A stretch of 11,275 nt of DNA from Huberarchaeum crystalense [NCBI: Candidatus Huberarchaeum crystalense] (lineage in GTDB: Archaea; Huberarchaeota; Huberarchaeia; Huberarchaeales). The stretch is from NCBI GenBank assembly GCA_002790315.1, contig PFUW01000018.1, positions 1 through 11,275 of the forward strand. The letters are read 5' to 3'. The position numbers and the translations under genes are program-made. The notes under the pieces were generated by a model. That model did not search any database and was not told the DNA's origin. It saw nothing but the letters and a program-made list of their open reading frames with translations. Below are positions 366 to 11,071 of this stretch, piece after piece (within the stretch, counting starts at the first letter, position 1; every line of letters starts with the position of its first letter).

Positions 366-693
366 ATTATTATTTAAATTATAATTAAAAATTAAAAAAT
401 TTGATTTAGGATATAAAGAATAGTGCGCGCTTTGGAAAAACTTATCAATTATAATAAATAAGGGTTTGGTTAGCAGCACTCACAAAATCATGCTTTTAAT
501 AGGATTTTGAAGATAAAAAGGGCTTAATGATGCGGAAAATGTGGAAAACAAAGAGATTTAAGAAAAATTAAGAAGATAAAAATTTTTATCTTTGAACTGT
601 AAGTCAATTAGCATATGGTTTTGCTTAAAAAAAGTTTTGACATTCTCTATCAAACAAAGTATTTGCGCGCTCCTTTTTTTTACTTTATTTTTT
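366..693. other. AT-rich non-coding stretch
   Basis: No convincing gene was found on either strand. The stretch holds two copies of GCGCGC (425-430 and 665-670) and a perfect 20-bp palindrome at 573-592. The only methionine-led reading frame noticed on the plus strand encodes 13 basic residues (from 530) and is not supported as a gene. It probably carries the upstream regions of the serpin remnant (leftward) and of the surface glycoprotein gene (rightward). Confidence 0.5.
573..592. repeat. 20-bp perfect palindrome
   Basis: AAGATAAAAATTTTTATCTT is its own reverse complement, with no spacer. In RNA it could form a weak A/U hairpin and in DNA a dimeric protein site. It is about 170 bases upstream of the surface glycoprotein start and outside any gene. 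Its role is unknown. Confidence 0.6.
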
Positions 694-711
694 ATTTATA
701 AAAATATATAA
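694..711 (+). promoter_or_regulatory. TATA box of the surface glycoprotein gene
   Basis: TTTATAAAAATATATAAC is a strong archaeal TATA-like element about 50-65 bases before the ATG at 760. With the usual spacing of about 25 bases, transcription would start near 730, giving a short leader. No Shine-Dalgarno sequence is visible in that leader, which contains a long T-run. Confidence 0.5.
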
Positions 712-759
712 CTTGTTTTTTTTTGTTTTTTCATTTTAAACCACATTACTAAATATATT

Positions 760-2901
760 ATGAAAAATACCTCCATTCTTTTTTTTTTGTCGCTTGCTCT
801 TGTTGTTTTGGTAGCATCTTTTGCAATTGTAAATGCCAATGAGCTTGAAATTACACTTGACGAAAAAATTAGTGTGCAAGCAGAAGGTGATGGAATGTAT
901 GTTGCATATTATAATGTGACAGGGGGTCAAGTTTCAATTATAATTAACAATTCTAATTCTGATTATATGTCTGGCGTATCTGACACCCAGCTTGCTGATA
1001 TTTGGGTACCTATCAATGATTCAAAAAGCACGCTTTTGTTTTCTACTTGCCGTGTAAATAATGCGAGCACAGCAACAACAGACGGAATTATTTCTAATAC
1101 GAGCAATTATCCGTGTGCAGCGCAAATATGTAAAATAGTTAGTGGCGGTTTATCTGATTGTTTTTGTCTTGGAGATGGAGCAGCGACAACTGTAAATAAA
1201 ATAGAAGTGCTTGATTATAATGAGCATTTAAATGGAACTTCTAATTATGATTATGTTATTCATATCAATCAACTTAATAGTAGCAAGCAAGCCACAATTC
1301 TTTGCAATCTCAACACAACAGCAATGCAAAACAATAATAATGTTGTTTTTTCTTTTGCAGAGACATACACTCCTGCTAAAATTATCAACCGCGGATGCAC
1401 AGATGTTAGTGTTGTTTTAAATGTTACAAACAATTATTCTTCATCTTGCAATATTTCAGCAACAATTCAAAAGAAATTAGCAACGCGCGGAACAGGAACT
1501 TCTTGGAGTAATTTAACATTTAATTCAGCAACTAGTGCGACTATAAACAACACTAATAATGGGGCTTCTGCTCAGTGGAATAATTTAATTTTTACACCAA
1601 GCCAAACCCAAACATTTAATTTTACAATAAGCGCCTGTCCAAATATGACTGCTAATACATCAAAACTTGAAATGGGGCGCGTGCATATTTCTTTTAGTTT
1701 AGCAAATAATTCTTGCGCAAACGAAACAAAAACAGGCCTAAAAATAGGCCATGTTTCAGCAGTTGGTTCTGGTAGAATTGAGCCGCAAAAAGGATATAAT
1801 GGAACAGATTGGAATGAAACATCAACTTTTTACAATACTGCAACTGATTTGAATTATACTGTTTACAGTATGCGGGTTTGGGCTACAAATGGAACAGTTC
1901 CTTCTGCAAGCCCTAATGATGTATCAATTTCTGGTAGTGAATGGGCAAATTGCTTGGCAACATCTCCTTCTTTTGTTACTAATGGTTCAAGTGTTGGCTG
2001 CAATGGTGTACAAAGCTTTAAATTTAATGGAACACCTGTTGTGTGGGCGCGACCACTATTTGAATTGTCTCAAGGTGGAAATCGTGGTTGGCAAACCTAT
2101 ATTCAATTTGGAAACAGCGAAAATGCAAGTTATGCTTTGGGTTCTGATTATATGTTTATTGAAAAAATATGGGTTGTAAATGATTATCTTATACGCACAG
2201 CAAAACGAGTTATCCCTATTTCTCAACCAGGTTGCTATAATATTTCAATAAATGTAACAAATATGGGGCCAAGCTGTTCGCCGTATGTTTATATATATGA
2301 TATTGTTCCGCGCAAATTTAATGAAAGTATTTCTAACTTAGTTGTATTTAAAGACGACAGTGCAGGGAATGGAGTTTTTAGTAATACTTGCGATAATATA
2401 GCAAAACCAGGCAACACAGTAACAAATGTATCGCAAGGATATTTGCTTTCATTTGCAGATTCATCTGCAAGCGAAACTTGGAGTTTAGTGAGTTGCACAA
2501 ATACTTTCAATAAATCTCAATACACAGGAAAGCAAACAATGAGCGGTAAGTATAATGGAACGGGCTATTATTGGAAATTATTCCCTCTTGCTGGCTCTGT
2601 AAGTGGTGGAGAGTGTGTAGATGGAAAGTATCAAAACCTTGAAAATATGAGTATTGAGCAAAGTGTAATGATAAGTTATACAACATGCGCAGATGAAAAT
2701 GCTACTTATTATGCAAGCGACTTGTTTATTATTGGTGTAGACCCTGCAAATGCTGAAGGCAACGCAGCACCCCCACTTTTAGCAGGAATGGGAATAATAA
2801 GTTCAAGTAGTTTATCTGAAATTCTTTTGATTTTAGCATTGGCTGCTATTTTTGGCATAATTATCTTTGTTTATAGAAGGAATCAAAAGAAAAATGAATA
2901 A
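760..2901 (+). CDS. Secreted, membrane-anchored surface glycoprotein, 713 aa
   Basis: The family is not recognised. The N-terminus is a classical signal peptide: a basic start, a hydrophobic core at residues 6-24, and likely cleavage after ANA (residue 26). One C-terminal transmembrane helix lies at about 687-705, followed by a basic tail (YRRNQKKNE), so about 660 residues should face outward. The outer part carries about 33 N-x-S/T sequons, consistent with archaeal AglB-type N-glycosylation, and many cysteines that could form disulfides. It looks rich in beta-sandwich, Ser/Thr/Asn-rich sequence without obvious internal repeats. The stop overlaps the start of the next surface-protein gene by 8 bases, so the two are probably co-transcribed. 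An S-layer or cell-contact protein is plausible but is an inference. A run of ten T (779-788) lies inside the signal-peptide codons. Confidence 0.85.
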   Translation: MKNTSILFFLSLALVVLVASFAIVNANELEITLDEKISVQAEGDGMYVAYYNVTGGQVSIIINNSNSDYMSGVSDTQLADIWVPINDSKSTLLFSTCRVNNASTATTDGIISNTSNYPCAAQICKIVSGGLSDCFCLGDGAATTVNKIEVLDYNEHLNGTSNYDYVIHINQLNSSKQATILCNLNTTAMQNNNNVVFSFAETYTPAKIINRGCTDVSVVLNVTNNYSSSCNISATIQKKLATRGTGTSWSNLTFNSATSATINNTNNGASAQWNNLIFTPSQTQTFNFTISACPNMTANTSKLEMGRVHISFSLANNSCANETKTGLKIGHVSAVGSGRIEPQKGYNGTDWNETSTFYNTATDLNYTVYSMRVWATNGTVPSASPNDVSISGSEWANCLATSPSFVTNGSSVGCNGVQSFKFNGTPVVWARPLFELSQGGNRGWQTYIQFGNSENASYALGSDYMFIEKIWVVNDYLIRTAKRVIPISQPGCYNISINVTNMGPSCSPYVYIYDIVPRKFNESISNLVVFKDDSAGNGVFSNTCDNIAKPGNTVTNVSQGYLLSFADSSASETWSLVSCTNTFNKSQYTGKQTMSGKYNGTGYYWKLFPLAGSVSGGECVDGKYQNLENMSIEQSVMISYTTCADENATYYASDLFIIGVDPANAEGNAAPPLLAGMGIISSSSLSEILLILALAAIFGIIIFVYRRNQKKNE

Positions 2902-3697
2902 ATCAATTTTATATTTATTTATTGCAACCTTTTTAACAGGAATATTACTAACCACAATCTCACCTATATATGGGCTTGATACTGATGATTCATCAGATAT
3001 TTATTTTGAACAACAAAATTATCTTATTAATTTGAATAAGAATAATGATAGTACTATCTCTCTTTTTACTACATTAAAGAACAATGGAAAAGATGCTCGC
3101 ATTTTTGGATATTTTACTTATTATTCAAACTTGCCTTTAAAAGATGTTGTATTAATTATAAATGGAGAACAAGCAGATGCGAAGAAATTGCGCGTAGAAA
3201 ATTCAATACTTACTTATGAGGGTTTATGGGAGCCATTGCCATCAGGACAAACATTAAATATATTTTTAACTCATTCTGTAGATTTTAATCCCAAAGGCAT
3301 TTTGTTTAAAGAAATTGAAATTATTCCCGGAAAATTTTATTTTAAGGATTTTTCTAACATATCTATAAAATTTGCCACGATAGCAATACAAACTCCAAAC
3401 AAAATAACATATAGCAATTATCCTAAATTTGAGATTAACTCAGCAGATGAGTATTCTGTTATTTGGCAAGATGATGGCTCTAATCGCCAATACATAGTTG
3501 AATATTCAGCAATTCCTTTTTTTAAAAATCATATTGTGCAGGGTTATTTTATTTTTTGGGTGTTTTTGTTTTTAGTTGCAGTAGGTGTGTTTTATATGTA
3601 TGAAAAAAAAGTGAGGCAAAAAGATTTTGTTGGTGTTGATCCTTTTATAGAAAAAAGTGCAGCCAAAAAGAAGAAAAAAAATAAACCAAGTAAGTAG
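2894..3697 (+). CDS. Membrane-anchored surface protein, 267 aa, unknown family
   Basis: The start is placed at ATG 2894 (MNKSILYLFIATF) rather than the in-frame ATG 27 bases upstream, because 2894 gives a clean signal peptide (likely cleaved near SPIYG, residues 23-27) and an 8-base overlap with the preceding gene. The extracellular part of about 190 residues looks all-beta, with LKNNGKDARIFGYFTYYSN reminiscent of Ig-like or CARDB-type folds, and has few sequons compared with its neighbour. One transmembrane helix lies at about 217-236 (YFIFWVFLFLVAVGVFYMY). A cytoplasmic tail of about 30 residues ends in a lysine cluster (KKKKKNKPSK). The gene arrangement suggests a partner of the 713-residue glycoprotein. 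The function is unknown. Confidence 0.8.
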   Translation: MNKSILYLFIATFLTGILLTTISPIYGLDTDDSSDIYFEQQNYLINLNKNNDSTISLFTTLKNNGKDARIFGYFTYYSNLPLKDVVLIINGEQADAKKLRVENSILTYEGLWEPLPSGQTLNIFLTHSVDFNPKGILFKEIEIIPGKFYFKDFSNISIKFATIAIQTPNKITYSNYPKFEINSADEYSVIWQDDGSNRQYIVEYSAIPFFKNHIVQGYFIFWVFLFLVAVGVFYMYEKKVRQKDFVGVDPFIEKSAAKKKKKNKPSK

Positions 3698-3813
3698 AAA
3701 GAGAAAGCAAAGCAAAAAGTAAATATATTGTGTGTGTTAAACATATTAAATAAATTTTGGCTGAAAAAAACTTTAATTTTTTAAACTTTAACAAATATAA
3801 TAATTTTAGTTTT

Positions 3814-3895
3814 TATACATTAATTAGATTTAGTTATACATTAATTAGATTTAGTTATACATTAATTAGATTTAGTTATACATTAATTAGATTTA
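3814..3895. repeat. 21-bp tandem repeat, four copies
   Basis: Units at 3814-3834, 3835-3855 and 3856-3876 are identical (TATACATTAATTAGATTTAG plus T). A fourth copy at 3877-3895 is cut short by two bases. There are no spacers, so this is not a CRISPR array. It lies between the 3' ends of two convergent genes. The unit contains TTAATTA-type palindromic sequence. A slippage product or transcription-end region is possible; neither is shown. Confidence 0.95.
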
Positions 3896-3938
3896 CTCTA
3901 TGTTTTTCTAATTTGGAATATATTATTTAGTAAAATAA

Positions 3939-5801
3939 CTATTTTTTTGCTGTTTTTTTCTCATTTGTAGAATGTGGCGCGCCATCTTTAACCACAATCA
4001 TATAAGCAACTAAAAGAACAAAATAAGATATTAAAAAGTATAAAACTACACATAACATATTGCAAGTAGTAGGCAAAAGAGGAAGAATGGGTAAGCAAGC
4101 GATGATTGCGATTGCTAGCAAGATTCTCCAAGATTTTTTTTGTTTTACTGATAAAAGCACACAACCTAAAATTAAAAGTAAAATAACAAAAGGAAGAAAT
4201 TCAGATTTTATGATGCAAAATTGCGCGCAAAACGTTTTTTCTTGATATATATAATTAATCATTGTGCTGTATGCTGTCATTGATGTATAAATAGTATATT
4301 TTCCACTTTCGCTAAGTTCAAGATAATATATTCCATTTTCATTTGTTGTAATATTTTGTTTTTTTCCAGAAAGGAACATATAAGTTAAATTAAAAAAGGG
4401 CAAAGGTTCTCCATATTGGTCTTTGACAAAAATAATTAAAATTTTATCATCTTGCCGCAATGTAATATTTGGGATTATTGTTTGTTTTTGCAAGTACACA
4501 CTAAAATTTGCTTGGTTATAACAAGTTCTGTTTATACTTGGGGCAGTAATTGAGAAATTATAAATGCCGAGTTCATTAGCTAAAAATTGCAATGTTTTGT
4601 TTTGGTAATAATAATCTATAATTTTATTTCCTGATGGAAAGATTATTTCAACACGCGCATCGTATATTGGTTGGTTGTAAACATTAAAAATATTCAATGT
4701 TGAGTTTTTGAGATAGTTGATTTTTAGTTCATAATAGATAGTCTCATTTTTTAAACAAGATTTGTATTTTTGTCGGGAAACAGAATAATGCCTTTGCTTT
4801 AGCTTAACTTGAATTGTTGGCTCTTTTATTTTTCCAGTATAATTTACAAAAAAATTTTGATCAAAAATAATGCTAAATTTTGGCAAAGACCAAAACACAG
4901 GAACATAATTTACAGAGTAATTTACAATAGGAGAATTCCAACTTTGACCTGGATTTAAAATTGTGTTTGGTGTGAAAATAAAATATTGGTTGGCATTGCA
5001 AGGTTGAGAATTACAAATAGATGTTTCATTTCCTTCCCACAAACGAATTTCTGTTAAATTTATTTGGGTTTCTGAAGGATTTGAGAAAATTGCAGATGCT
5101 TTCCAAATGTCGCCCTCGCGCGATTTTTCAACAATATTTTCAGCAGTTGTTAATGCAGAACCAAAGTAATTTTCTGTGCTATTATGTGAAGAAAGTATTT
5201 CTATTTCAGCATCTGCAAGTTGATGTGATGGCAACTTATAGGAATTTTCAAAATAAGCATAAAATGTTGTTGATGCGCTTTTATTTAAAGTTTGTTTCCA
5301 AATTACTTGGTTTTCTGAAATATTTCCATTACTTTCTTTTATTTTTCCAGGCAATGTTTTTTTAAGTGTTAGGTTTATTGGTTTGTTTAATTTGTTTTGT
5401 ATTGTGATTGCTAAATTTATGCCTGTTTTTTCATTTTCAGTTACTTGTGAGGGAACTATGCTTTCAGAGATATGCAAAATGCTTTGCGATTTGTTTCCAA
5501 AAAACTGTTTTTTTTCGCCAGATTGCAATTCATTAATAAAAATAGGGCATATTATTGTGTTGTTTTGACTATCTTTCCAATTTACAGAAGCATCGCAAGA
5601 CAGATTTATGTTCCAAATGCGGCTATTAGTAGGGTTATATATTTCAAGAGTGATTTGTTTTTCTACAATATATCGGTTATTTTGCTCAACAATATTCCCT
5701 GATTCTACAATGTTTATTTGTGGATTTAGAGCGTGCGCCGATGTAAAAATTATTAAACTCAACAAACTGAAACTCAAAAATAGTGCAATATTGTTTTTCA
5801 T
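3939..5801 (-). CDS. Large surface protein with three C-terminal membrane helices, 620 aa
   Basis: The family is not recognised. A signal peptide is clear (MKNNIALFLSFSLLSLIIF, likely cleaved after AHA at residue 24). About 500 outward-facing residues follow, with roughly 20 N-x-S/T sequons. Two segments look like carboxypeptidase-regulatory or Ig-like modules: one near residues 370-425 (NQPIYDARVEIIFPSGNK, then GIYNFSITAP) and one near 450-510 (VKDQYGEPLPFFNLTY, then NENGIYYLELSESGKYTIY). The C-terminus has three predicted helices (about 536-552, 560-577 and 582-604) and a short charged tail, unlike the single anchors of the two genes opposite. Shared style and adjacency suggest a common cell-surface role. 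The gene is divergent from the helicase gene, with a 78-base gap carrying both promoters. Confidence 0.82.
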   Translation of the reverse strand: MKNNIALFLSFSLLSLIIFTSAHALNPQINIVESGNIVEQNNRYIVEKQITLEIYNPTNSRIWNINLSCDASVNWKDSQNNTIICPIFINELQSGEKKQFFGNKSQSILHISESIVPSQVTENEKTGINLAITIQNKLNKPINLTLKKTLPGKIKESNGNISENQVIWKQTLNKSASTTFYAYFENSYKLPSHQLADAEIEILSSHNSTENYFGSALTTAENIVEKSREGDIWKASAIFSNPSETQINLTEIRLWEGNETSICNSQPCNANQYFIFTPNTILNPGQSWNSPIVNYSVNYVPVFWSLPKFSIIFDQNFFVNYTGKIKEPTIQVKLKQRHYSVSRQKYKSCLKNETIYYELKINYLKNSTLNIFNVYNQPIYDARVEIIFPSGNKIIDYYYQNKTLQFLANELGIYNFSITAPSINRTCYNQANFSVYLQKQTIIPNITLRQDDKILIIFVKDQYGEPLPFFNLTYMFLSGKKQNITTNENGIYYLELSESGKYTIYTSMTAYSTMINYIYQEKTFCAQFCIIKSEFLPFVILLLILGCVLLSVKQKKSWRILLAIAIIACLPILPLLPTTCNMLCVVLYFLISYFVLLVAYMIVVKDGAPHSTNEKKTAKK

Positions 5802-5812
5802 ATACTATTTGT

Positions 5813-5827
5813 AAAAAATATTTATGC
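5813..5827 (-). promoter_or_regulatory. TATA-like element of the 620-aa surface protein gene
   Basis: On the minus strand GCATAAATATTTTTT lies about 12-26 bases before the ATG at 5801. That spacing would put the transcription start close to the start codon (a leaderless or nearly leaderless message). The region is AT-rich throughout, so the exact element is uncertain. Confidence 0.35.
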
Positions 5828-5850
5828 AATTACTCCACTTTGTTTCGTAA

Positions 5851-5860
5851 TTTATAAATA
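5851..5860 (+). promoter_or_regulatory. TATA box of the helicase gene
   Basis: TTTATAAATA is centred about 25 bases before the ATG at 5880, the usual TATA-to-start spacing in archaea. The message is therefore probably leaderless. No Shine-Dalgarno sequence is seen. Confidence 0.5.
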
Positions 5861-5879
5861 TTTTTCTTTAAAAATATTT

Positions 5880-7424
5880 ATGCTTAAAAAACCATTGCAA
5901 TTGCGCGCATATCAACAAAACATTTTGACAAATATTTTAAACAAAAATTCGCTTGTTATTTTACCAACAGGAACAGGAAAAACCTTTCTTGCTTTGGCTT
6001 TGGCAGTTGAAAAGTTAAAAACCCACCCAAATCAAAAAATTTTAATAATGGCTCCGTCAAAACCATTAGTGCACCAGCATTTTTTGACATTTGTTGAGTT
6101 TTTAGATGCTGAAATTGTTGAAATTACAGGTCAGGTTCCTGCTTTTAATAGAGAGAAAATATATGCACAAGCAGACATTATTATAGCCACACCGCAGACA
6201 ATTGAGAATGATCTTATTACTGGTCGCTTGGACTCTAATAATTTGTCGTTTGTTGTGTTTGACGAAGCGCATCATGCGGTTTCTAATTACAGTTATGTAT
6301 TTATTTCAAAGTTTTTTCAAACAAAGGATTCAAAACCGCAACATCTTGGACTTACTGCTTCTCCTGGTAGCAACCAAGAAAAAATTGATGAAATTATAAA
6401 CAATTTGTTTATCAAACACATAGAAATTAGAAGCGAGGAAGATAAAGATATGAGTTTGTATATAATGAAAAAACAAATAGAGTGGAGAAAAATAAATTTG
6501 CCGGAACAATTTTTGAGCATAAAAAAAGCACTAACTGTTGCTTCAAAAACTTTACAAAAGCAATTATATAACTTAGGTTTTTCTGTTGAAAATAACAGCA
6601 AACGAGACTTAATCTTGCTGCAAAACAAACTTCACAACCTTGTAGCAAATAGTGGTGAAAAAACAGTTTTTCGCGCACTATCTTTGCTTGCTGGACTTAT
6701 AAAAGTAGAATATGCAATTGAACTTTTAGAAACGCAAGGGATTAGCGCACTTTTAGGGTTTTTTGAGAAATTAAAAAAGCAAAAATCAAAAGCAGCAAAA
6801 TCGCTTTTATCTGATGAAAATTTTAAATTTGCTTGTGAAAAAGCACAATATTTATCAACAGAAAAGTTGGAACACCCAAAAATACCAGAGTTAGTGAAAA
6901 TTATTGAAGAAAACAAGAACAAGCAAATCATTATATTTTCGCAATACCGTTCTACTGTTGATGTGATTATTAACTCGATTTGCGCGGTTTGTGTTCCTGT
7001 TAAGCTTATCGGGCAAAAAGAAGGGATGACACAAAAACAACAACAAGCAGCAGTTGAGCGATTTAGGCAAGGAAAATCAAATGTGCTTGTTTGCACTTCT
7101 GTTGGCGAAGAAGGCTTAGATATTTTGGGGGTAGATATTGCTATTTTTTTTGAAGCAGTTCCGTCTGAAATCCGCGCAATTCAACGCGCAGGCAGAGTGG
7201 CGCGCCACAAAGTTGGCAAAATAATTATTTTCTTGGCAAAAGGAACGCGCGACGAGGTTTATTTTTGGAGCGCGCAATGGAAAAAAAAGCAAATGAAAAA
7301 AACAATAGATATTTTAAAAAATAACAACTTTGCTGATAAATCTTGGCAACCAGATAAAAATTCTTTTGCTGATAAATCTTCATCTTCAAGCAAAAGTCAT
7401 AAGAATCTTTTGGATTTTGAATAA
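5880..7424 (+). CDS. hef: Hef/FANCM-type SF2 DNA helicase, stand-alone, 514 aa
   Basis: This is an ATP-dependent DNA helicase/translocase of the archaeal Hef family, which acts on stalled forks and branched DNA. RecA domain 1 has the Q-motif-like LRAYQQNI (8-15), Walker A PTGTGKT (29-35), motif Ia APSKPLVHQH (58-67), DEAH (128-131) and TAS (159-161). A helical insert at about 200-335 matches the thumb-like insert of Hef, MDA5 and FANCM. RecA domain 2 has IIFSQYRST (351-359), TSVGEEGLDI (406-415) and motif VI QRAGRVAR (435-442). Motif VI is unusual, since the family normally has GRTGR. Hef also carries an ERCC4 nuclease in the same chain; here the protein ends after the helicase, and the nuclease is encoded separately at 8476. 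The tail (about 484-506) has a duplicated FADKS segment and ends LLDFE, faintly like a PCNA-binding box. Confidence 0.93.
   Translation: MLKKPLQLRAYQQNILTNILNKNSLVILPTGTGKTFLALALAVEKLKTHPNQKILIMAPSKPLVHQHFLTFVEFLDAEIVEITGQVPAFNREKIYAQADIIIATPQTIENDLITGRLDSNNLSFVVFDEAHHAVSNYSYVFISKFFQTKDSKPQHLGLTASPGSNQEKIDEIINNLFIKHIEIRSEEDKDMSLYIMKKQIEWRKINLPEQFLSIKKALTVASKTLQKQLYNLGFSVENNSKRDLILLQNKLHNLVANSGEKTVFRALSLLAGLIKVEYAIELLETQGISALLGFFEKLKKQKSKAAKSLLSDENFKFACEKAQYLSTEKLEHPKIPELVKIIEENKNKQIIIFSQYRSTVDVIINSICAVCVPVKLIGQKEGMTQKQQQAAVERFRQGKSNVLVCTSVGEEGLDILGVDIAIFFEAVPSEIRAIQRAGRVARHKVGKIIIFLAKGTRDEVYFWSAQWKKKQMKKTIDILKNNNFADKSWQPDKNSFADKSSSSSKSHKNLLDFE
7329..7380 (+). repeat. 16-bp direct repeat in the helicase tail
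   Basis: TTTGCTGATAAATCTT occurs at 7329-7344 and again at 7365-7380. The 36-base spacing keeps the reading frame and duplicates FADKS in the protein. It lies in the low-complexity tail after the last helicase motif, so it probably does not affect catalysis. Confidence 0.9.
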
Positions 7425-7441
7425 GTGTAGGTATTAATATG

Positions 7442-7611
7442 TTTAGTTTGAATAAGCAATAATTAATAGTGAAATGTTTAGATTTGTTAATAAGCAACAA
7501 TTAATAATAAAACATTTAGATTTGTTAATAAGCAACAATTAATAATAAAATATTTAGATTTGTTAATATAAAATACTTAGTGGTAAAATGTTTAGTTTGT
7601 TAATAAGCATT
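7442..7611. repeat. 38-bp tandem repeat reaching the PP-loop gene start
   Basis: Five diverging copies lie at 7442-7476 (35 bp), 7477-7514, 7515-7552, 7553-7590 and a partial copy at 7591-7611. Copies 2 and 3 are nearly identical; the others have drifted. Each begins TTTAGATTTGTTAATAAGC or a close variant. The fourth copy carries the likely TATA box (around 7565-7574), and the last stops right at the chosen start codon of the next gene. Short methionine-led frames inside the array are by-products of the repeat. Confidence 0.92.
7563..7578 (+). promoter_or_regulatory. TATA-like element of the PP-loop/nuclease pair
   Basis: TTAATATAAAATACTT in the fourth repeat copy is the best TATA candidate. 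It implies a transcription start near 7595-7602, just upstream of ATG 7612 and downstream of the alternative ATG at 7588. It would drive the PP-loop gene and probably the nuclease gene 15 bases further on. Confidence 0.4.
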
Positions 7612-8460
7612 ATGATAGGCGAAATAGAAATAAACAACATAATAAGTAAAATGAAAAATAATGATTATGTTAAGACTTTCAAAAATATGATTAAACACAA
7701 CATCACAAACCAAGCCCAAAAACAAGAAGTAGCAGTGGCTTTTTCTGGCGGCGTTGATAGTTCTGTTTTATCAAAATTATTAAAGGATTTGGGTTATACA
7801 CAAACTTGCTATGTTGTTGGTGTAAGTGGTTGTAGTGATTTTAAGATAGCAGAATTGTCTTGCTGTGAGATAGGTATTAAATTAAAAAAAATAATTGTCT
7901 CTGAAAAAGAAATTAGTGATGCAGTTGAAATTTTGGGTAAAATTTTGAGCGCGCTCTATGAAAAGCATAAAGACGAATTTTTGCGTCCTACTCTACTTTC
8001 AATTTCTTATAATCTGCCTTTGTTTTTTGTTGCAAAATATGCTGTTGAAAATATTGTTTTTGTTGGTCAAGGACCTGACGAACTTCTTGGAGGTTATAGT
8101 CGCCACAGCAAAATGTTATTTGACGCAGCAGTTAAAGAAATAGCAAAAGATACAAACAATTTACACTTTGTTTTGCTTCAAAACAAAGCAATATTTGATT
8201 ATTTTGATAAGAAGTGCGCGCTTCCCTATATAAGCACAGAAATTGCAGATTTTTGCCTTGATTTGTTGTTTGAACTCAAAATAAATAACAAAACCAACAA
8301 ATACCTTTTAAGGTTGCTGGCAAAACATCTTAGATTGAGCAATGAAATTGCTTTTAGGAAAAAGAAAGCGAGCCAATATGGATCAGGAATGTGGAAAATT
8401 GTAAACAAACATCTTAAAAATAGTTCTGCTTTTGTATGTTTTTTGTTAGCTTGTGGATAA
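7612..8460 (+). CDS. Stand-alone asparagine-synthase-type PP-loop ATPase, 282 aa
   Basis: This is an N-type ATP pyrophosphatase related to the synthetase half of asparagine synthetase B. Such enzymes adenylate a carboxyl group and transfer an amine to it. The PP-loop AFSGGVDSS is at residues 43-51. The second family motif GQGPDELLGGY is at 152-162, matching GxGxDELFGGY of AsnB. A late KKKASQYGSG (250-259) matches the C-terminal substrate-loop region of AsnB. The glutaminase domain is absent, so ammonia or a partner must supply the amine, or the substrate differs. ATG 7612 is preferred over 7588 because 7588 lies inside the tandem repeat and too close to the TATA candidate; ATG 7645 is also possible. 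Its place between the helicase and nuclease genes is unexplained. The substrate is unknown. Confidence 0.85.
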   Translation: MIGEIEINNIISKMKNNDYVKTFKNMIKHNITNQAQKQEVAVAFSGGVDSSVLSKLLKDLGYTQTCYVVGVSGCSDFKIAELSCCEIGIKLKKIIVSEKEISDAVEILGKILSALYEKHKDEFLRPTLLSISYNLPLFFVAKYAVENIVFVGQGPDELLGGYSRHSKMLFDAAVKEIAKDTNNLHFVLLQNKAIFDYFDKKCALPYISTEIADFCLDLLFELKINNKTNKYLLRLLAKHLRLSNEIAFRKKKASQYGSGMWKIVNKHLKNSSAFVCFLLACG

Positions 8461-8475
8461 ATCTTCAAAAATTAT

Positions 8476-9120
8476 ATGTCTGTTCCTGAATTTATTCCAA
8501 AAATAATTATAGATTCGCGCGAATTTCATTCGCTTGTTACGCGCGAACTTGCTTTACTTGGCGCGAAAATTGAAATGAAGCCTTTAGATGTTGGTGATTA
8601 TGTTGTTTCTTGCGATGTTGTTGTAGAAAGAAAAGAAATAGGAGATTTTATTTTATCTATTTTAGACAACCGCCTGTTTGAGCAACTAGCGAATTTAAGG
8701 AAAGCAGAGTCACCAATTTTACTCATAGAGGGAACAAATTCTACACACAATCTTGGCCCAAATGCATTTTTTGGAGCATTAGCATCTGTGGCTGTTGATT
8801 TTAAAATTCCAATATTGTGGATGAAAAATAGTAATGAAAGCGCGCGCTTTTTGTTTCAGCTTGCCAAACGCGAGCAGTTTGATTTAAAAAAAGAAGTAGT
8901 AGTCAGGTGTCAAAAGAAAATATCAACAATTCAAGATACGCAAGAGTTTTTTATCGCTGGTTTGCCTAATATAAATACTGTGTTGGCGCGTCGACTTCTT
9001 AAAAAATTTAAAACACCTAAAAAAATTGTTGTTGCTTCCAATGAAAAACTTCAAAAAGTTGAAGGGATTGGCAAGAAAAAAGCAGAACAGATAAGAGAGG
9101 TTTTAGATAAATGCTATTAA
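8476..9120 (+). CDS. xpf: XPF/Hef-type ERCC4 structure-specific nuclease, 214 aa
   Basis: This is an endonuclease of the XPF/Mus81/Hef family, which cuts branched DNA such as forks, flaps and 3' overhangs. The nuclease core has DSRE (13-16) and the diagnostic GD...ERKxxxD signature, seen as GDYVV (40-44) and ERKEIGD (51-57), which supply the metal-binding acidic residues. The LLIEG strand (82-86) fits the fold. A tandem helix-hairpin-helix domain follows at about 158-212 (AGLPNINTVLARRLLKKF, then VEGIGKKKAEQIREVL), used for dimerisation and DNA binding. The length fits the nuclease-plus-HhH arrangement of helicase-less archaeal XPF. The protein begins 15 bases after the PP-loop gene and is probably co-transcribed with it. 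With the helicase at 5880, it would supply the two halves of a Hef. No clear C-terminal PCNA-binding box is seen. Confidence 0.94.
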   Translation: MSVPEFIPKIIIDSREFHSLVTRELALLGAKIEMKPLDVGDYVVSCDVVVERKEIGDFILSILDNRLFEQLANLRKAESPILLIEGTNSTHNLGPNAFFGALASVAVDFKIPILWMKNSNESARFLFQLAKREQFDLKKEVVVRCQKKISTIQDTQEFFIAGLPNINTVLARRLLKKFKTPKKIVVASNEKLQKVEGIGKKKAEQIREVLDKCY

Positions 9121-9172
9121 ATATGTAGAAAGTAAAACGTTTTGAAAGTTTTGATCCAATAAAAACATACCA

Positions 9173-9283
9173 TAACAAAATAGTTTATAATTATAATATT
9201 ACCAAATTAATATATTTCCCTAACAAAATAGTTTATAATTATAATATTACCAAATTAATATATTCCCCAACAAAATAGTTTAT
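9173..9283. repeat. 48-bp tandem repeat forming the next gene's promoter and start
   Basis: Two nearly identical 48-bp units (9173-9220 and 9221-9268) are followed by a 15-base partial third copy (9269-9283). They differ by one base near the end (TTTCCC versus TTCCCC). The third copy runs through AACAAAATAGTTTAT and changes at the next base, so that TTTATA of the repeat becomes TTTATG, the start codon of the following gene. Each full unit carries a TATA-rich core (GTTTATAATTATAATATT), so the promoter element is duplicated. Confidence 0.95.
9231..9248 (+). promoter_or_regulatory. TATA-like element inside repeat unit 2
   Basis: GTTTATAATTATAATATT in the second repeat unit sits 35-50 bases before ATG 9282, giving a very short leader. 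An identical copy lies 48 bases upstream and could act as a second, weaker promoter. Confidence 0.4.
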
Positions 9284-9875
9284 GACTAAAACAGCGTTAG
9301 ACTATGTCAAAACATATTTTACTTATGCTATAATTGTATTTATTTTAATGCTTTTGATTAAGCAGATTATCACAACATCTTTTCCAACAATATCATTTAT
9401 TCCTATTGATAATACTCCAACACCAACAGCAGAAATTCAGATGCAGGAATTAAAGAAGCAAATAGCAGCCCATAAGCAGTTAACTTTTGCGCGCGCAGTT
9501 GAAAATACTATTTTTGATTTTAAGGATTATTTATTTTCTCAAGTGATGTATAGCTTAAAAATTGAAAGCAATAAACAGCTTGTGTTTTTTTACGGAAGAA
9601 TTCCTGTGTGCGAAGGTGATAAAGTAGTTTATAGGGGAGCTAATTTAATATATGATTTTGATGAAAAAAAGCCAAAATACCTTGAAATTTTTAATTCTCG
9701 AGTTGAATTTGGTTGTAATATTCACTTTGCCATAGAACAAGCAGACATTATTGCTAGTGAAGTTAAATCCAAATGCCTTGCTTTTGATCCTGAGCCGATG
9801 TGGATGTTTGTATGTGGAAATAAAACCTTTTTAGTAGATGTTAAGACCTGCCAGTTAAAACCTTCTGTTGATTAG
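9282..9875 (+). CDS. Small membrane-anchored protein of unknown function, 197 aa
   Basis: The family is not recognised. A single transmembrane helix lies at about residues 14-32 (FTYAIIVFILMLLIKQII), near the N-terminus and without a clear cleavage site, so it is probably a signal anchor. A short Pro/Thr-rich linker (about 40-50) and a charged helical stretch (about 53-80, LKKQIAAHKQLTFARAVE) follow. The rest looks like a compact alpha/beta domain with about five cysteines (VCEGDK, FGCNIHF, SKCLAF, FVCGNK, KTCQL) that could pair outside the cell. The start codon is created at the edge of a tandem repeat, and the last codons are duplicated downstream of the stop. It sits just before the ribosomal genes but has no evident link to them. 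Confidence 0.75.
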   Translation: MTKTALDYVKTYFTYAIIVFILMLLIKQIITTSFPTISFIPIDNTPTPTAEIQMQELKKQIAAHKQLTFARAVENTIFDFKDYLFSQVMYSLKIESNKQLVFFYGRIPVCEGDKVVYRGANLIYDFDEKKPKYLEIFNSRVEFGCNIHFAIEQADIIASEVKSKCLAFDPEPMWMFVCGNKTFLVDVKTCQLKPSVD

Positions 9876-9933
9876 TGTATATTTAGTAGATGTTAAGACC
9901 TGCCAGTTAAAATCTACTGTCTCTTAGTAAATA
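9830..9933 (+). repeat. 52-bp tandem duplication of the gene's 3' end
   Basis: A 31-base block (TTTAGTAGATGTTAAGACCT and 11 more bases) occurs identically at 9830-9860 and 9882-9912. The following 21 bases are similar, including a second TAG. The whole unit is 52 bp. The first copy encodes LVDVKTCQLKPSVD and the stop. The second, shifted by one frame, would read LVDVKTCQLKSTVS and stop, so it is a silent copy of the C-terminus lying after the gene. Confidence 0.93.
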
Positions 9934-9999
9934 GATTTATGAATAAAACTATAAAAAACAAGCTAAAATTATAAACAATATATTTTTCTATTGTGTTTC

Positions 10000-10018
10000 T
10001 TTATAAAATATATAAAAG
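10000..10018 (+). promoter_or_regulatory. TATA box of the ribosomal protein genes
   Basis: TTTATAAAATATATAAAAG lies about 47-65 bases before the eL19 start. It implies a transcription start near 10035-10045 and a leader of about 20-30 bases. No Shine-Dalgarno sequence precedes the ATG. Confidence 0.5.
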
Positions 10019-10064
10019 TTGTTTCAAACTTTTTATATTATTTTTAACTTTGTTAAAATATCTT

Positions 10065-10604
10065 ATGGCTAAATACAAAACTTTACGAAGATTAGCGAGC
10101 GACATTTTGAAAGTTGGCGAAACTAAAATAAAGTTTGACGCAGGGTATGCTGATGATTTCAAGAGTTCTGTTACGCGCGAAGATGTTAAAGCGTTAATCA
10201 AAGCAGGCGCGATTTTCAAAGTAAAGAAAGTTGTCAAAAGTAAAGAAAAACAAGCAAAAAAAAATAAAAAGCAAGGCCAAGGACGAAAAAGAGGCACTAA
10301 AAATGCAAGAACCCCACGAAAAGAACAATGGGTGAAAAAAGTGCGCGCACAACGTGACGAATTAAAAAAAGCAGTAGAAAGTCTTAAACTTACTTCAAAA
10401 ACAAAGCGAAAATTTTATTCTCAAATTTCAGGAGGCAAATTTAAATCAAGAGCTGATCTGCGAAGGGGCCTTGAGTCAGAAAGAATGTCAGAAGAAAAAG
10501 ACAACCTTTCTAAATCAAAAGACAAAAAAACAAGATTAGGAAGAAATCAAGATGAAAGCCAAACAAAAAGACAAAAAAATAAGGAAGAAGGAAAATTAAG
10601 ATGA
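10065..10604 (+). CDS. rpl19e: Large-subunit ribosomal protein eL19, 179 aa
   Basis: This is an archaeal/eukaryotic-type protein of the 50S subunit. The start MAKYKTLRRLASDILKVGET matches the conserved N-terminus of eL19 (LRxQKRLAAxILxVGExRV). A very basic middle follows (GQGRKRGTKNARTPRKEQW, about 77-95, matching the family's GxGKRKGTxxARxPxKxxW), then the long helix with the R-x-L-R-R pattern near 125-140. A longer ATG-led frame starting 72 bases upstream is rejected because it adds a non-conserved hydrophobic stretch that overlaps the TATA region. The last 30 or so residues (NLSKSKDKKTRLGRNQDE and on) are a charged extension beyond the usual family end. The stop overlaps the uL18 start (ATGA). 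Confidence 0.95.
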   Translation: MAKYKTLRRLASDILKVGETKIKFDAGYADDFKSSVTREDVKALIKAGAIFKVKKVVKSKEKQAKKNKKQGQGRKRGTKNARTPRKEQWVKKVRAQRDELKKAVESLKLTSKTKRKFYSQISGGKFKSRADLRRGLESERMSEEKDNLSKSKDKKTRLGRNQDESQTKRQKNKEEGKLR

Positions 10605-11029
10605 AAGCAAGGCAAATTTACAAAAGACGGCGCAAAGGCAAGACATATTATCAAAAGCGAATAAAACTTTTGCTTTCAAGATTGCCAAGATTAGTTGTTA
10701 GATTTACAAACAAACACATTATTTGCCAAATAGTTGAATATAAAGAAAAAGGAGATCTTGTAAAAGCAACTTGTTTTGATAATAAAAATCAAGAGGGCTG
10801 CCAAAAAGCAGGTGTAAAAATTGGAGAAAAGGCAAAAGAGCTTGGAATTAAAAAAATGATTTTGGATTTAGGGCTTGGGAAAAATAAAGCAAGAGTTGTA
10901 GCGTGCGCGCGCGGTGTTTTAAGCACAGATGTTGATTTGCCATTTTCATTTGATGAAAGTAAAAAAGAAGATAAAGATAAAACTAAAAAAAATGAAGAAA
11001 AACCAAAAGTAAAGAAAGAGCAGAATTAG
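10601..11029 (+). CDS. rpl18: Large-subunit ribosomal protein uL18, 142 aa
   Basis: This 50S protein binds 5S rRNA. The N-terminus YKRRRKGKTYYQKRIKLL (7-24) and PRLVVRFTNKHIICQIVEY (29-47) match archaeal uL18 (YRRRREGKTDYRxRLxLL, then PRLVVRxSNKHIxAQIIxY). A conserved LDLGLGKNKARV region is at about 88-99, and the family's GxxxAGL pattern is represented only loosely by CARGVLSTDVDLP. The middle is shorter than in most archaeal homologues, and the C-terminus is a Lys/Glu-rich tail of about 25 residues. It overlaps eL19 by 4 bases, which indicates coupled translation, and the order eL19-uL18 is the standard archaeal ribosomal order. Confidence 0.93.
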   Translation: MKARQIYKRRRKGKTYYQKRIKLLLSRLPRLVVRFTNKHIICQIVEYKEKGDLVKATCFDNKNQEGCQKAGVKIGEKAKELGIKKMILDLGLGKNKARVVACARGVLSTDVDLPFSFDESKKEDKDKTKKNEEKPKVKKEQN

Positions 11030-11071
11030 TTGGCATGGTAGAGCGCGCCTTTTTACTTTGTTAAAAAATAT

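What the first reader, a model, noticed from the sequence alone, without database searches (positions are those of the whole stretch)
425..11048. GCGCGC is strongly over-represented in AT-rich DNA
GCGCGC was found by eye at about 14 sites: 425, 665, 3977, 4223, 5903, 7200, 7270, 7949, 8216, 8840, 9489, 10343, 10905 and 11043. At roughly 30% GC, about 0.1 would be expected in a window this size. Inside genes it falls in all three codon phases (GCG-CGC for Ala-Arg, xGC-GCG-Cxx, and xxG-CGC-GCx), and it also occurs between genes, so protein sequence does not explain it. It could be a recognition site for a chromosome protein, a methylation or restriction-related motif, or a biased mutation or repair outcome.
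Basis: partly seen in the sequence, partly recalled or inferred. Interest (0 to 1): 0.6.

Follow-up and report, generated by a model that had tools for sequence, protein, structure and literature searches.

The report
Genome-wide GCGCGC palindrome in tiny archaeon
One six-letter palindrome, GCGCGC, recurs about once per thousand bases through an AT-rich miniature archaeal genome, far more often than its base composition or its proteins predict, much like a feature described from cyanobacteria.

Summary
In detail: 17 GCGCGC words at the 14 listed places, against 0.6 expected. It is not local. In the near-identical genome G001 (454 kb readable, 31% GC) there are 485 copies, about 1.07 per kb, against 16 from dinucleotides; by standardised excess it is the top hexamer at Markov orders 1-3. 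It lies in all three codon phases (352 copies against 28.6 after synonymous shuffling) and between genes (64 against 1.1). Exact GCGCGC runs are favoured, mismatches are tolerated most at the outer bases, and copies avoid each other within 50 bp. Among 394 archaea G001 has, by my reading, the highest density of AT-flanked copies, but relative to trinucleotides another genome, G031, is as extreme. The pattern resembles cyanobacterial highly iterated palindromes (HIPs), here in a deep archaeon, perhaps Huberarchaeota (inferred). HIPs usually come with a matching methyltransferase. I found no cytosine methyltransferase, MutS or NucS in the 74%-complete G001, so membership is not claimed. I favour a protein that reads the hexamer; biased repair and passive mutation bias remain serious rivals.

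The parts
425..430 (.). GCGCGC, between genes
665..670 (.). GCGCGC, between genes (upstream of the ORF at 760)
3977..3982 (.). GCGCGC inside ORF 3939-5801 (-), phase 1
4223..4228 (.). GCGCGC inside ORF 3939-5801 (-), phase 1
5903..5908 (.). GCGCGC in helicase gene, phase 2
7200..7205 (.). GCGCGC in helicase gene, phase 0 (Ala-Arg)
7270..7275 (.). GCGCGC in helicase gene, phase 1
7949..7954 (.). GCGCGC in Asn_synthase-domain gene, phase 1
8216..8221 (.). GCGCGC in Asn_synthase-domain gene, phase 1
8840..8847 (.). GCGCGCGC in ERCC4-domain nuclease gene
9489..9496 (.). GCGCGCGC in ORF 9282-9875
10343..10348 (.). GCGCGC in ribosomal protein L19e gene, phase 2
10905..10912 (.). GCGCGCGC in ribosomal protein L18 gene
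11043..11048 (.). GCGCGC just after the L18 gene

Best explanation
GCGCGC is a genome-wide, highly iterated palindrome kept at about one copy per kb by a pressure that acts on DNA, not on protein (shown). The likeliest cause is a cellular DNA-recognising protein whose site is (G)CGCG(C): a chromosome-organising, replication or repair factor that needs a site every kb or so but gains nothing from a second one next door (inferred). The protein is not identified.
For: 30-fold over dinucleotide expectation, and top hexamer by standardised excess at orders 1-3. 352 against 28.6 (sd 5.2) in 40 synonymous shuffles, all phases. Between genes 64 against 1.1 at order 1 and 17.7 at order 2. Ala codons are GCG in 88% of 150 cases before CG but 1-6% before G. 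Of 300 Ala-Arg pairs 137 are spelt exactly GCGCGC. Run lengths favour the G-start hexamer: GCGC 419, GCGCGC 286, GCGCGCGC 59, against CGCG 203, CGCGCG 45, CGCGCGCG 1. One-mismatch words keep 4.0-8.0x at the outer base, 2.7-4.4x at the second and 0.9-1.8x at the centre (same order), as a binding-energy matrix would give. Copies avoid each other within 50 bp: 5 against 18.8 (sd 4.4), 0 of 500 simulations as low; three other palindromes (TTGCAA, TTATAA, CAATTG) do not. Among 394 archaea G001 has the highest AT-flanked density by my reading of the table, and order-1 O/E 21.6 against at most 4.8 in 31 sampled others.
Against: No binding protein was identified or tested. The five-base word GCGCG already predicts GCGCGC (order-4 O/E 1.05). 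CGCGCG, counted with overlaps, is itself 26x over order 1 (186 against 7.0), and GCGCGA and CGCGCA are enriched too, as a context-dependent mutation bias could give. Relative to trinucleotides G001 is not unique: O/E at order 2 is 2.5 in G001 and 2.6 in G031 for the AT-flanked word, and 3.0 against 4.0 for GCGCGC itself (485/160 and 61/15.4). By plain ratio at order 2, CGGCCG (9 copies, 4.4x) and GGGGGG (4.1x) exceed GCGCGC. The short-range avoidance may only be avoidance of hairpins, since two copies form an inverted repeat; GCGC runs and GCGCA avoid each other more weakly below 25 bp.
Confidence: 0.38

Rival explanations
1. Modification plus biased repair: a CGCG-specific cytosine methyltransferase and a repair bias for G-methylC ratchet CGCG into GCGCGC, as Elhai proposed for CGATCG into GCGATCGC in cyanobacteria. 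The hexamers are then a by-product.
For: Elhai's model predicts saturation near one site per 1000 nt and one-off words that deviate at the outer positions (PMC4390886: abstract, found passages and part 1 of section 3.4). Both hold here: 1.07 per kb and outer-base tolerance. GCGCGC is G+CGCG+C, just as HIP1 is G+CGATCG+C.
Against: In G001 no match to C5 methylase PF00145, N4/N6 methylase PF01555, MutS PF00488, NucS PF01939 or Vsr PF03852. PADLOC scans of 279 ORFs of 170 aa or more listed as methylases only models that the D12 adenine enzyme itself matches; the lists were capped at 25 of 94 and 25 of 91 families for two sets and complete (23) for the third. CGCG stays 3.7x enriched outside GCGCGC. 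The assembly is 74% complete, so these absences are provisional.
Confidence: 0.25
2. Passive, context-dependent mutation and repair bias: CpG is kept or made next to GC and lost elsewhere, so alternating CG tracts accumulate without any reader of the hexamer.
For: CpG is depleted in ACGT (0.19), TCGA (0.46) and CCGG (0.45) but raised in GCGC (3.2) and CGCG (5.1). Effects at separate positions are roughly multiplicative. Other archaea show milder forms: GCGCGC 5.7x in G012 and 7.5x in G031 at order 1, and G031 equals or exceeds G001 at order 2. GCGCG accounts for GCGCGC at order 4.
Against: The reach is 5-6 bp and the size 30-fold. The run-length curve is not geometric: GC-start runs fall 419 to 286 to 59 to 0. 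Copies repel within 50 bp. GGCGCC and AGCGCT, which hold the same GCGC core, are below expectation (0.47 and 0.44), although TGCGCA is not (1.09).
Confidence: 0.29
3. Slippage or Z-DNA-type selection for alternating purine-pyrimidine tracts.
For: ATATAT and TATATA are 2.8x and 2.2x and ACACAC 2.1x over order 1.
Against: At order 2 these are 0.97, 0.75 and 1.29, while GCGCGC keeps 3.0 and CGCGCG 2.65. No alternating run of ten occurs and runs of nine number 4; isolated CGCGCG runs number 45 against 286 of GCGCGC.
Confidence: 0.04
4. A DNA-uptake tag, as in Haemophilus or Neisseria (recalled), which marks the symbiont's own DNA.
For: Density near one per kb is of the order of known uptake sequences (recalled).
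Against: No ComEC (PF03772) match in G001, 74% complete; uptake words known to me are not palindromes (recalled).
Confidence: 0.03
5. Codon usage or protein composition.
For: Ala-Arg and Arg-Ala are 1.34x and 1.57x over expectation.
Against: Synonymous shuffling leaves only 28.6 of 352 copies and all phases are used; the order-1 ratio is greater between genes (64/1.1) than in genes (422/15.3).
Confidence: 0.01

Closest known systems
Highly iterated palindromes of cyanobacteria: HIP1 (GCGATCGC) and alternates such as GGCGCC in Calothrix PCC 7103 (Elhai 2015, PMC4390886: abstract, found passages and part of one section seen)
   Same: A GC-rich palindrome and the most over-represented oligomer by standardised excess; about one per kb (the paper gives about 500-2500 per million nt); one-off words deviate at the outer positions.
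   Different: An archaeon, not a cyanobacterium; the word is GCGCGC; no matching methyltransferase found; 31% GC background.
DNA uptake sequences of Haemophilus and Neisseria (recalled)
   Same: Short word near one copy per kb in the whole genome.
   Different: Palindromic here; no ComEC match in G001.
Very-short-patch repair bias (Vsr) in E. coli (recalled)
   Same: A repair enzyme can inflate one word and deplete its neighbours.
   Different: No Vsr match; the transition neighbours GTGCGC and GCGCGT are enriched, not depleted (4.6x and 4.1x at order 1).

Membership tests
Highly iterated palindrome (HIP) | GC-rich palindrome that is the most over-represented oligomer of the genome | tested here: met
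   Top hexamer by standardised excess at Markov orders 1, 2 and 3, not at order 4; by plain ratio at order 2 CGGCCG and GGGGGG are higher
Highly iterated palindrome (HIP) | Density of about 500-2500 per million nt | tested here: met
   485 in 454,049 readable bases; range from PMC4390886
Highly iterated palindrome (HIP) | One-nucleotide deviations concentrated at the first and last positions | tested here: met
   Outer 4.0-8.0x, second 2.7-4.4x, central 0.9-1.8x over order 1
[quoted passage not shown]
   None found: PF00145 and PF01555 no match, only a D12 adenine enzyme; assembly 74% complete
Highly iterated palindrome (HIP) | Cyanobacterial genome (the group in which the paper describes them) | tested here: not met
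   Archaeal-type L19e and L18; the 80 RpoA' relatives kept are archaeal records at 31-40% identity
Restriction-modification recognition site | Site avoidance in the genome | tested here: not met
   GCGCGC is 30x enriched at order 1
Restriction-modification recognition site | Cognate methyltransferase | tested here: inconclusive
   No cytosine methylase found in a 74%-complete assembly
DNA uptake sequence | ComEC-type DNA import | tested here: inconclusive
   PF03772 no match in G001, 74% complete
Strand-oriented chromosome motif (Chi, KOPS type; recalled) | Orientation bias along replichores | not testable with these tools
   A palindrome has no orientation, and the assembly is in 74 contigs

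The most novel reading that the evidence does not exclude
A HIP-type palindrome evolved independently in an ultra-reduced archaeal symbiont that has neither cytosine DNA methyltransferase nor methyl-directed mismatch repair, so dense iterated palindromes can be kept by selection for an unknown chromosome-wide DNA-reading system rather than by methylation.
Probability: 0.32. Interest if true: 0.75.

Novelty: new variant of a known kind. Interest (0 to 1): 0.6.

Why it matters
What keeps HIP1 in cyanobacteria is open in the paper I read: a methylation-linked repair by-product, or selection for function. A second origin in a half-megabase archaeon with few repair genes separates these: if GCGCGC is unmethylated there, the methylation ratchet cannot be general. 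It also gives a way to look for an unknown genome-wide DNA-binding system, or an extreme mutation bias, in small archaea.

Tried and rejected
Codon or protein bias: rejected. Local artefact of the window: rejected, since G001 carries it throughout (58 windows of 5 kb, mean 4.9 copies, variance 4.9, range 0-11). Dispersed repeat or mobile element as carrier: not supported, since the flanks show only weak base preferences. Slippage: see rivals. Regulatory motif concentrated between genes: density is 0.86 per kb there and 1.11 in genes. Phase between copies: spacings modulo 3 are 126/126/111. Comparison of orthologous sites with a sister species was not possible: none of the 394 genomes drawn as relatives is nearer than the same domain, and the best 80 of 583 rpoA' matches lie at 31-40% identity (which warns that near records may be left out). 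Window against G001: three substitutions and two gaps in 11.1 kb, none at a GCGCGC, so uninformative. The HhH-GPD protein of G001 is most like OGG and 3-methyladenine glycosylases in the PDB and NCBIfam matches. Two histone-fold proteins are present, but sequence specificity cannot be judged. DNA phosphorothioation: the DndA/SspA hit is L054:7244-8386, which scores highest as an ordinary NifS/IscS cysteine desulfurase, and five neighbours gave no other Dnd or Ssp protein beyond a weak cross-match of a Sep-tRNA:Cys-tRNA synthase; weak DndD and type IV restriction hits were not followed. A regular-expression hit for an amino-methylase motif, L002:1-1773(-), is a DNA polymerase II small subunit.

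Limits: genes are my longest-ORF calls. The synonymous shuffle and one search used 288 ORFs from the first 60 stretches, not the later ones. Of 281 ORFs of 170 aa or more, 279 went to the PADLOC scans (the two largest left out); shorter ORFs were not scanned there. In the O/E comparison G146 and G182 dropped out (too few readable bases), G381 had no such contig, and G006, G041 and G046 were sampled but not put in. Sampled genomes were picked for high counts or high ratios, most with 20 kb or less for the background model. The ranking of 394 genomes is by eye from a table with rounded sizes.
Full report
Observation. GCGCGC occurs 17 times at 14 places in the window, at exactly the coordinates given, with 0.60 expected from 200 dinucleotide-preserving shuffles and none reaching 17. 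Three places are eight-base runs. Three places lie between genes and 11 inside ORFs, in all three codon phases. The window encodes ribosomal proteins L19e and L18, a DEAD/Helicase_C helicase, an ERCC4/HhH nuclease and an Asn_synthase-domain protein.

Genome. The window's own assembly is not held; the nearest, G001, shares 100% of the sampled 31-letter words, and 11.1 kb align with three substitutions and two gaps. G001 is listed at 500,000 bases and 74% completeness, with 485 GCGCGC and 186 CGCGCG. I fetched all its 74 contigs: 454,049 readable bases, 31.2% GC, 485 copies.

Strength. Expected counts are 6.5 (composition), 16.1 (order 1), 160 (order 2) and 266 (order 3); GCGCGC ranks first among hexamers by standardised excess at orders 1, 2 and 3. 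By plain ratio at order 2, CGGCCG (9 copies) and GGGGGG are higher. At order 4 the observed/expected value is 1.05, so the five-base word GCGCG already carries the signal, and CGCGCG counted with overlaps is 26x over order 1. Most other palindromes are scarce: the median O/E of the 64 six-base palindromes is 0.50 at order 1, and 14 of 64 exceed 1.

Not protein. In 288 predicted genes of the first 60 stretches there are 352 copies against 28.6 (sd 5.2) in 40 synonymous shuffles, with 111, 103 and 138 in phases 0, 1 and 2. Alanine is written GCG in 88% of 150 cases before CG but in 1-6% before a codon starting with G. Of 300 Ala-Arg pairs 137 are GCGCGC. In 74,696 intergenic bases at 25.2% GC there are 64 copies against 1.1 at order 1 and 17.7 at order 2.

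Anatomy. Maximal alternating runs number GCGC 419, GCGCGC 286, GCGCGCGC 59 and none of ten, against CGCG 203, CGCGCG 45, CGCGCGCG 1. The hexamer that starts with G is the favoured unit. Replacing an outer base leaves 4.0-8.0x enrichment, a second base 2.7-4.4x, a central base 0.9-1.8x, against 30x for the full word. With GCGCGC masked, CGCG is still 3.7x and GCGCGA 9.8x over order 1. Copies are spread almost at random (variance/mean 1.01 in 58 windows of 5 kb), except that neighbours under 50 bp are rare: 5 against 18.8 (sd 4.4), none of 500 simulations as low. Of eight bins this one and 400-800 bp (100 against 83.6) stand out. TTGCAA, TTATAA and CAATTG show no such avoidance; GCGC runs and GCGCA show it more weakly below 25 bp, and CGCG runs do not.

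Relatives. None of the 394 genomes drawn as relatives (G001 itself is counted in the 394) is nearer to it than the same domain. AT-flanked WGCGCGCW is densest in G001 by my reading of the table: 180 in the 500 kb listed, the next being G279 with 175 in 800 kb. Scaled to dinucleotide background G001 has O/E 21.6 and 31 others sampled have at most 4.8; scaled to trinucleotides G001 has 2.5 and G031 2.6. For GCGCGC itself G012 has 5.7x and G031 7.5x at order 1, and G031 has 61 against 15.4 at order 2, a higher ratio than G001's 485 against 160. Of the 80 named loci around rpoA', 38 have none; among the highest order-1 ratios are L067 (10 against 1.5 at 43% GC) and L082 (5 against 0.8 at 31% GC). 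So the strength at order 1 and the density are peculiar to G001 among what I sampled, while a tendency to alternating CG is wider.

Organism. The RpoA' protein matches archaeal records, many DPANN, at only 31-40% in the best 80 kept. Ca. Huberarchaeum crystalense is described as a deep lineage with a genome of about 0.5 Mb and 11 reconstructed genomes (PMC6792436, passages). This fits but is an inference: no named record was matched.

Machinery. In G001 there is no match to PF00145, PF01555, PF00488, PF01939, PF03852 or PF03772. There is one D12 adenine methyltransferase fused to a helix-turn-helix domain, one HhH-GPD glycosylase and two histone-fold matches. A DndA/SspA-like hit is an ordinary cysteine desulfurase by its best NCBIfam matches. 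With 74% completeness, absence is provisional.

Reading. The features match those of cyanobacterial HIPs: palindromic, about one per kb, outer-base tolerance (PMC4390886). By Elhai's logic GCGCGC would be the HIP built on a CGCG methylation core, but the expected methyltransferase and mismatch-repair genes were not found. I therefore favour a protein that reads the hexamer, with the repair ratchet and passive mutation bias as serious rivals that these data do not exclude.

Print status. Searches of the paper library (listings, with passages or sections seen only of PMC4390886, PMC6792436 and PMC8407392) showed no account of an iterated GCGCGC in archaea in what I saw. 'Archae' and 'GCGCGC' do not occur in the main text of PMC4390886. 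Subscription papers are mostly not in that library.

Noticed in passing
G001 (450 kb in ungapped pieces): TCCGGA is wholly absent (order-4 expectation 4.1; order-1 expectation 15.5 in the 392 kb fetched first), which may mark a restriction system.
   Followed up: partly
L161:4366-5466 (-); L149:800-1412 (-): A D12 adenine methyltransferase fused to a helix-turn-helix domain lies beside two small ORFs that match no PADLOC or NCBIfam family at E 0.01; possibly a compact restriction-modification unit.
   Followed up: partly
window 5880-7424 and 8476-9120: A helicase and an ERCC4/HhH nuclease, which in many archaea are one Hef protein (recalled), are separate genes here with an Asn_synthase-domain gene between them.
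   Followed up: no
G001 genome-wide: Broad scarcity of palindromes (ACGT 0.19, CATG 0.28, CTAG 0.36 at order 1) in a genome where my searches found one DNA methyltransferase.
   Followed up: no
G012 and G031 (unnamed archaea): A weaker order-1 excess of GCGCGC (98 against 17.3 and 61 against 8.2); in G031 AGCGCG is also 5x over expectation, and the order-2 excess of GCGCGC equals or exceeds that of G001.
   Followed up: partly
G001, L017:982-9783 (-) and L042:1-6891 (+): Two very large ORFs (over 2000 codons each) in a half-megabase genome, left out of the family scans.
   Followed up: no
window 760-2901 and 3939-5801 (-): Large ORFs beginning with signal-like segments; the first has no Pfam match and the second only carboxypeptidase-regulatory-like matches below the cut-off; possible surface proteins.
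   Followed up: no
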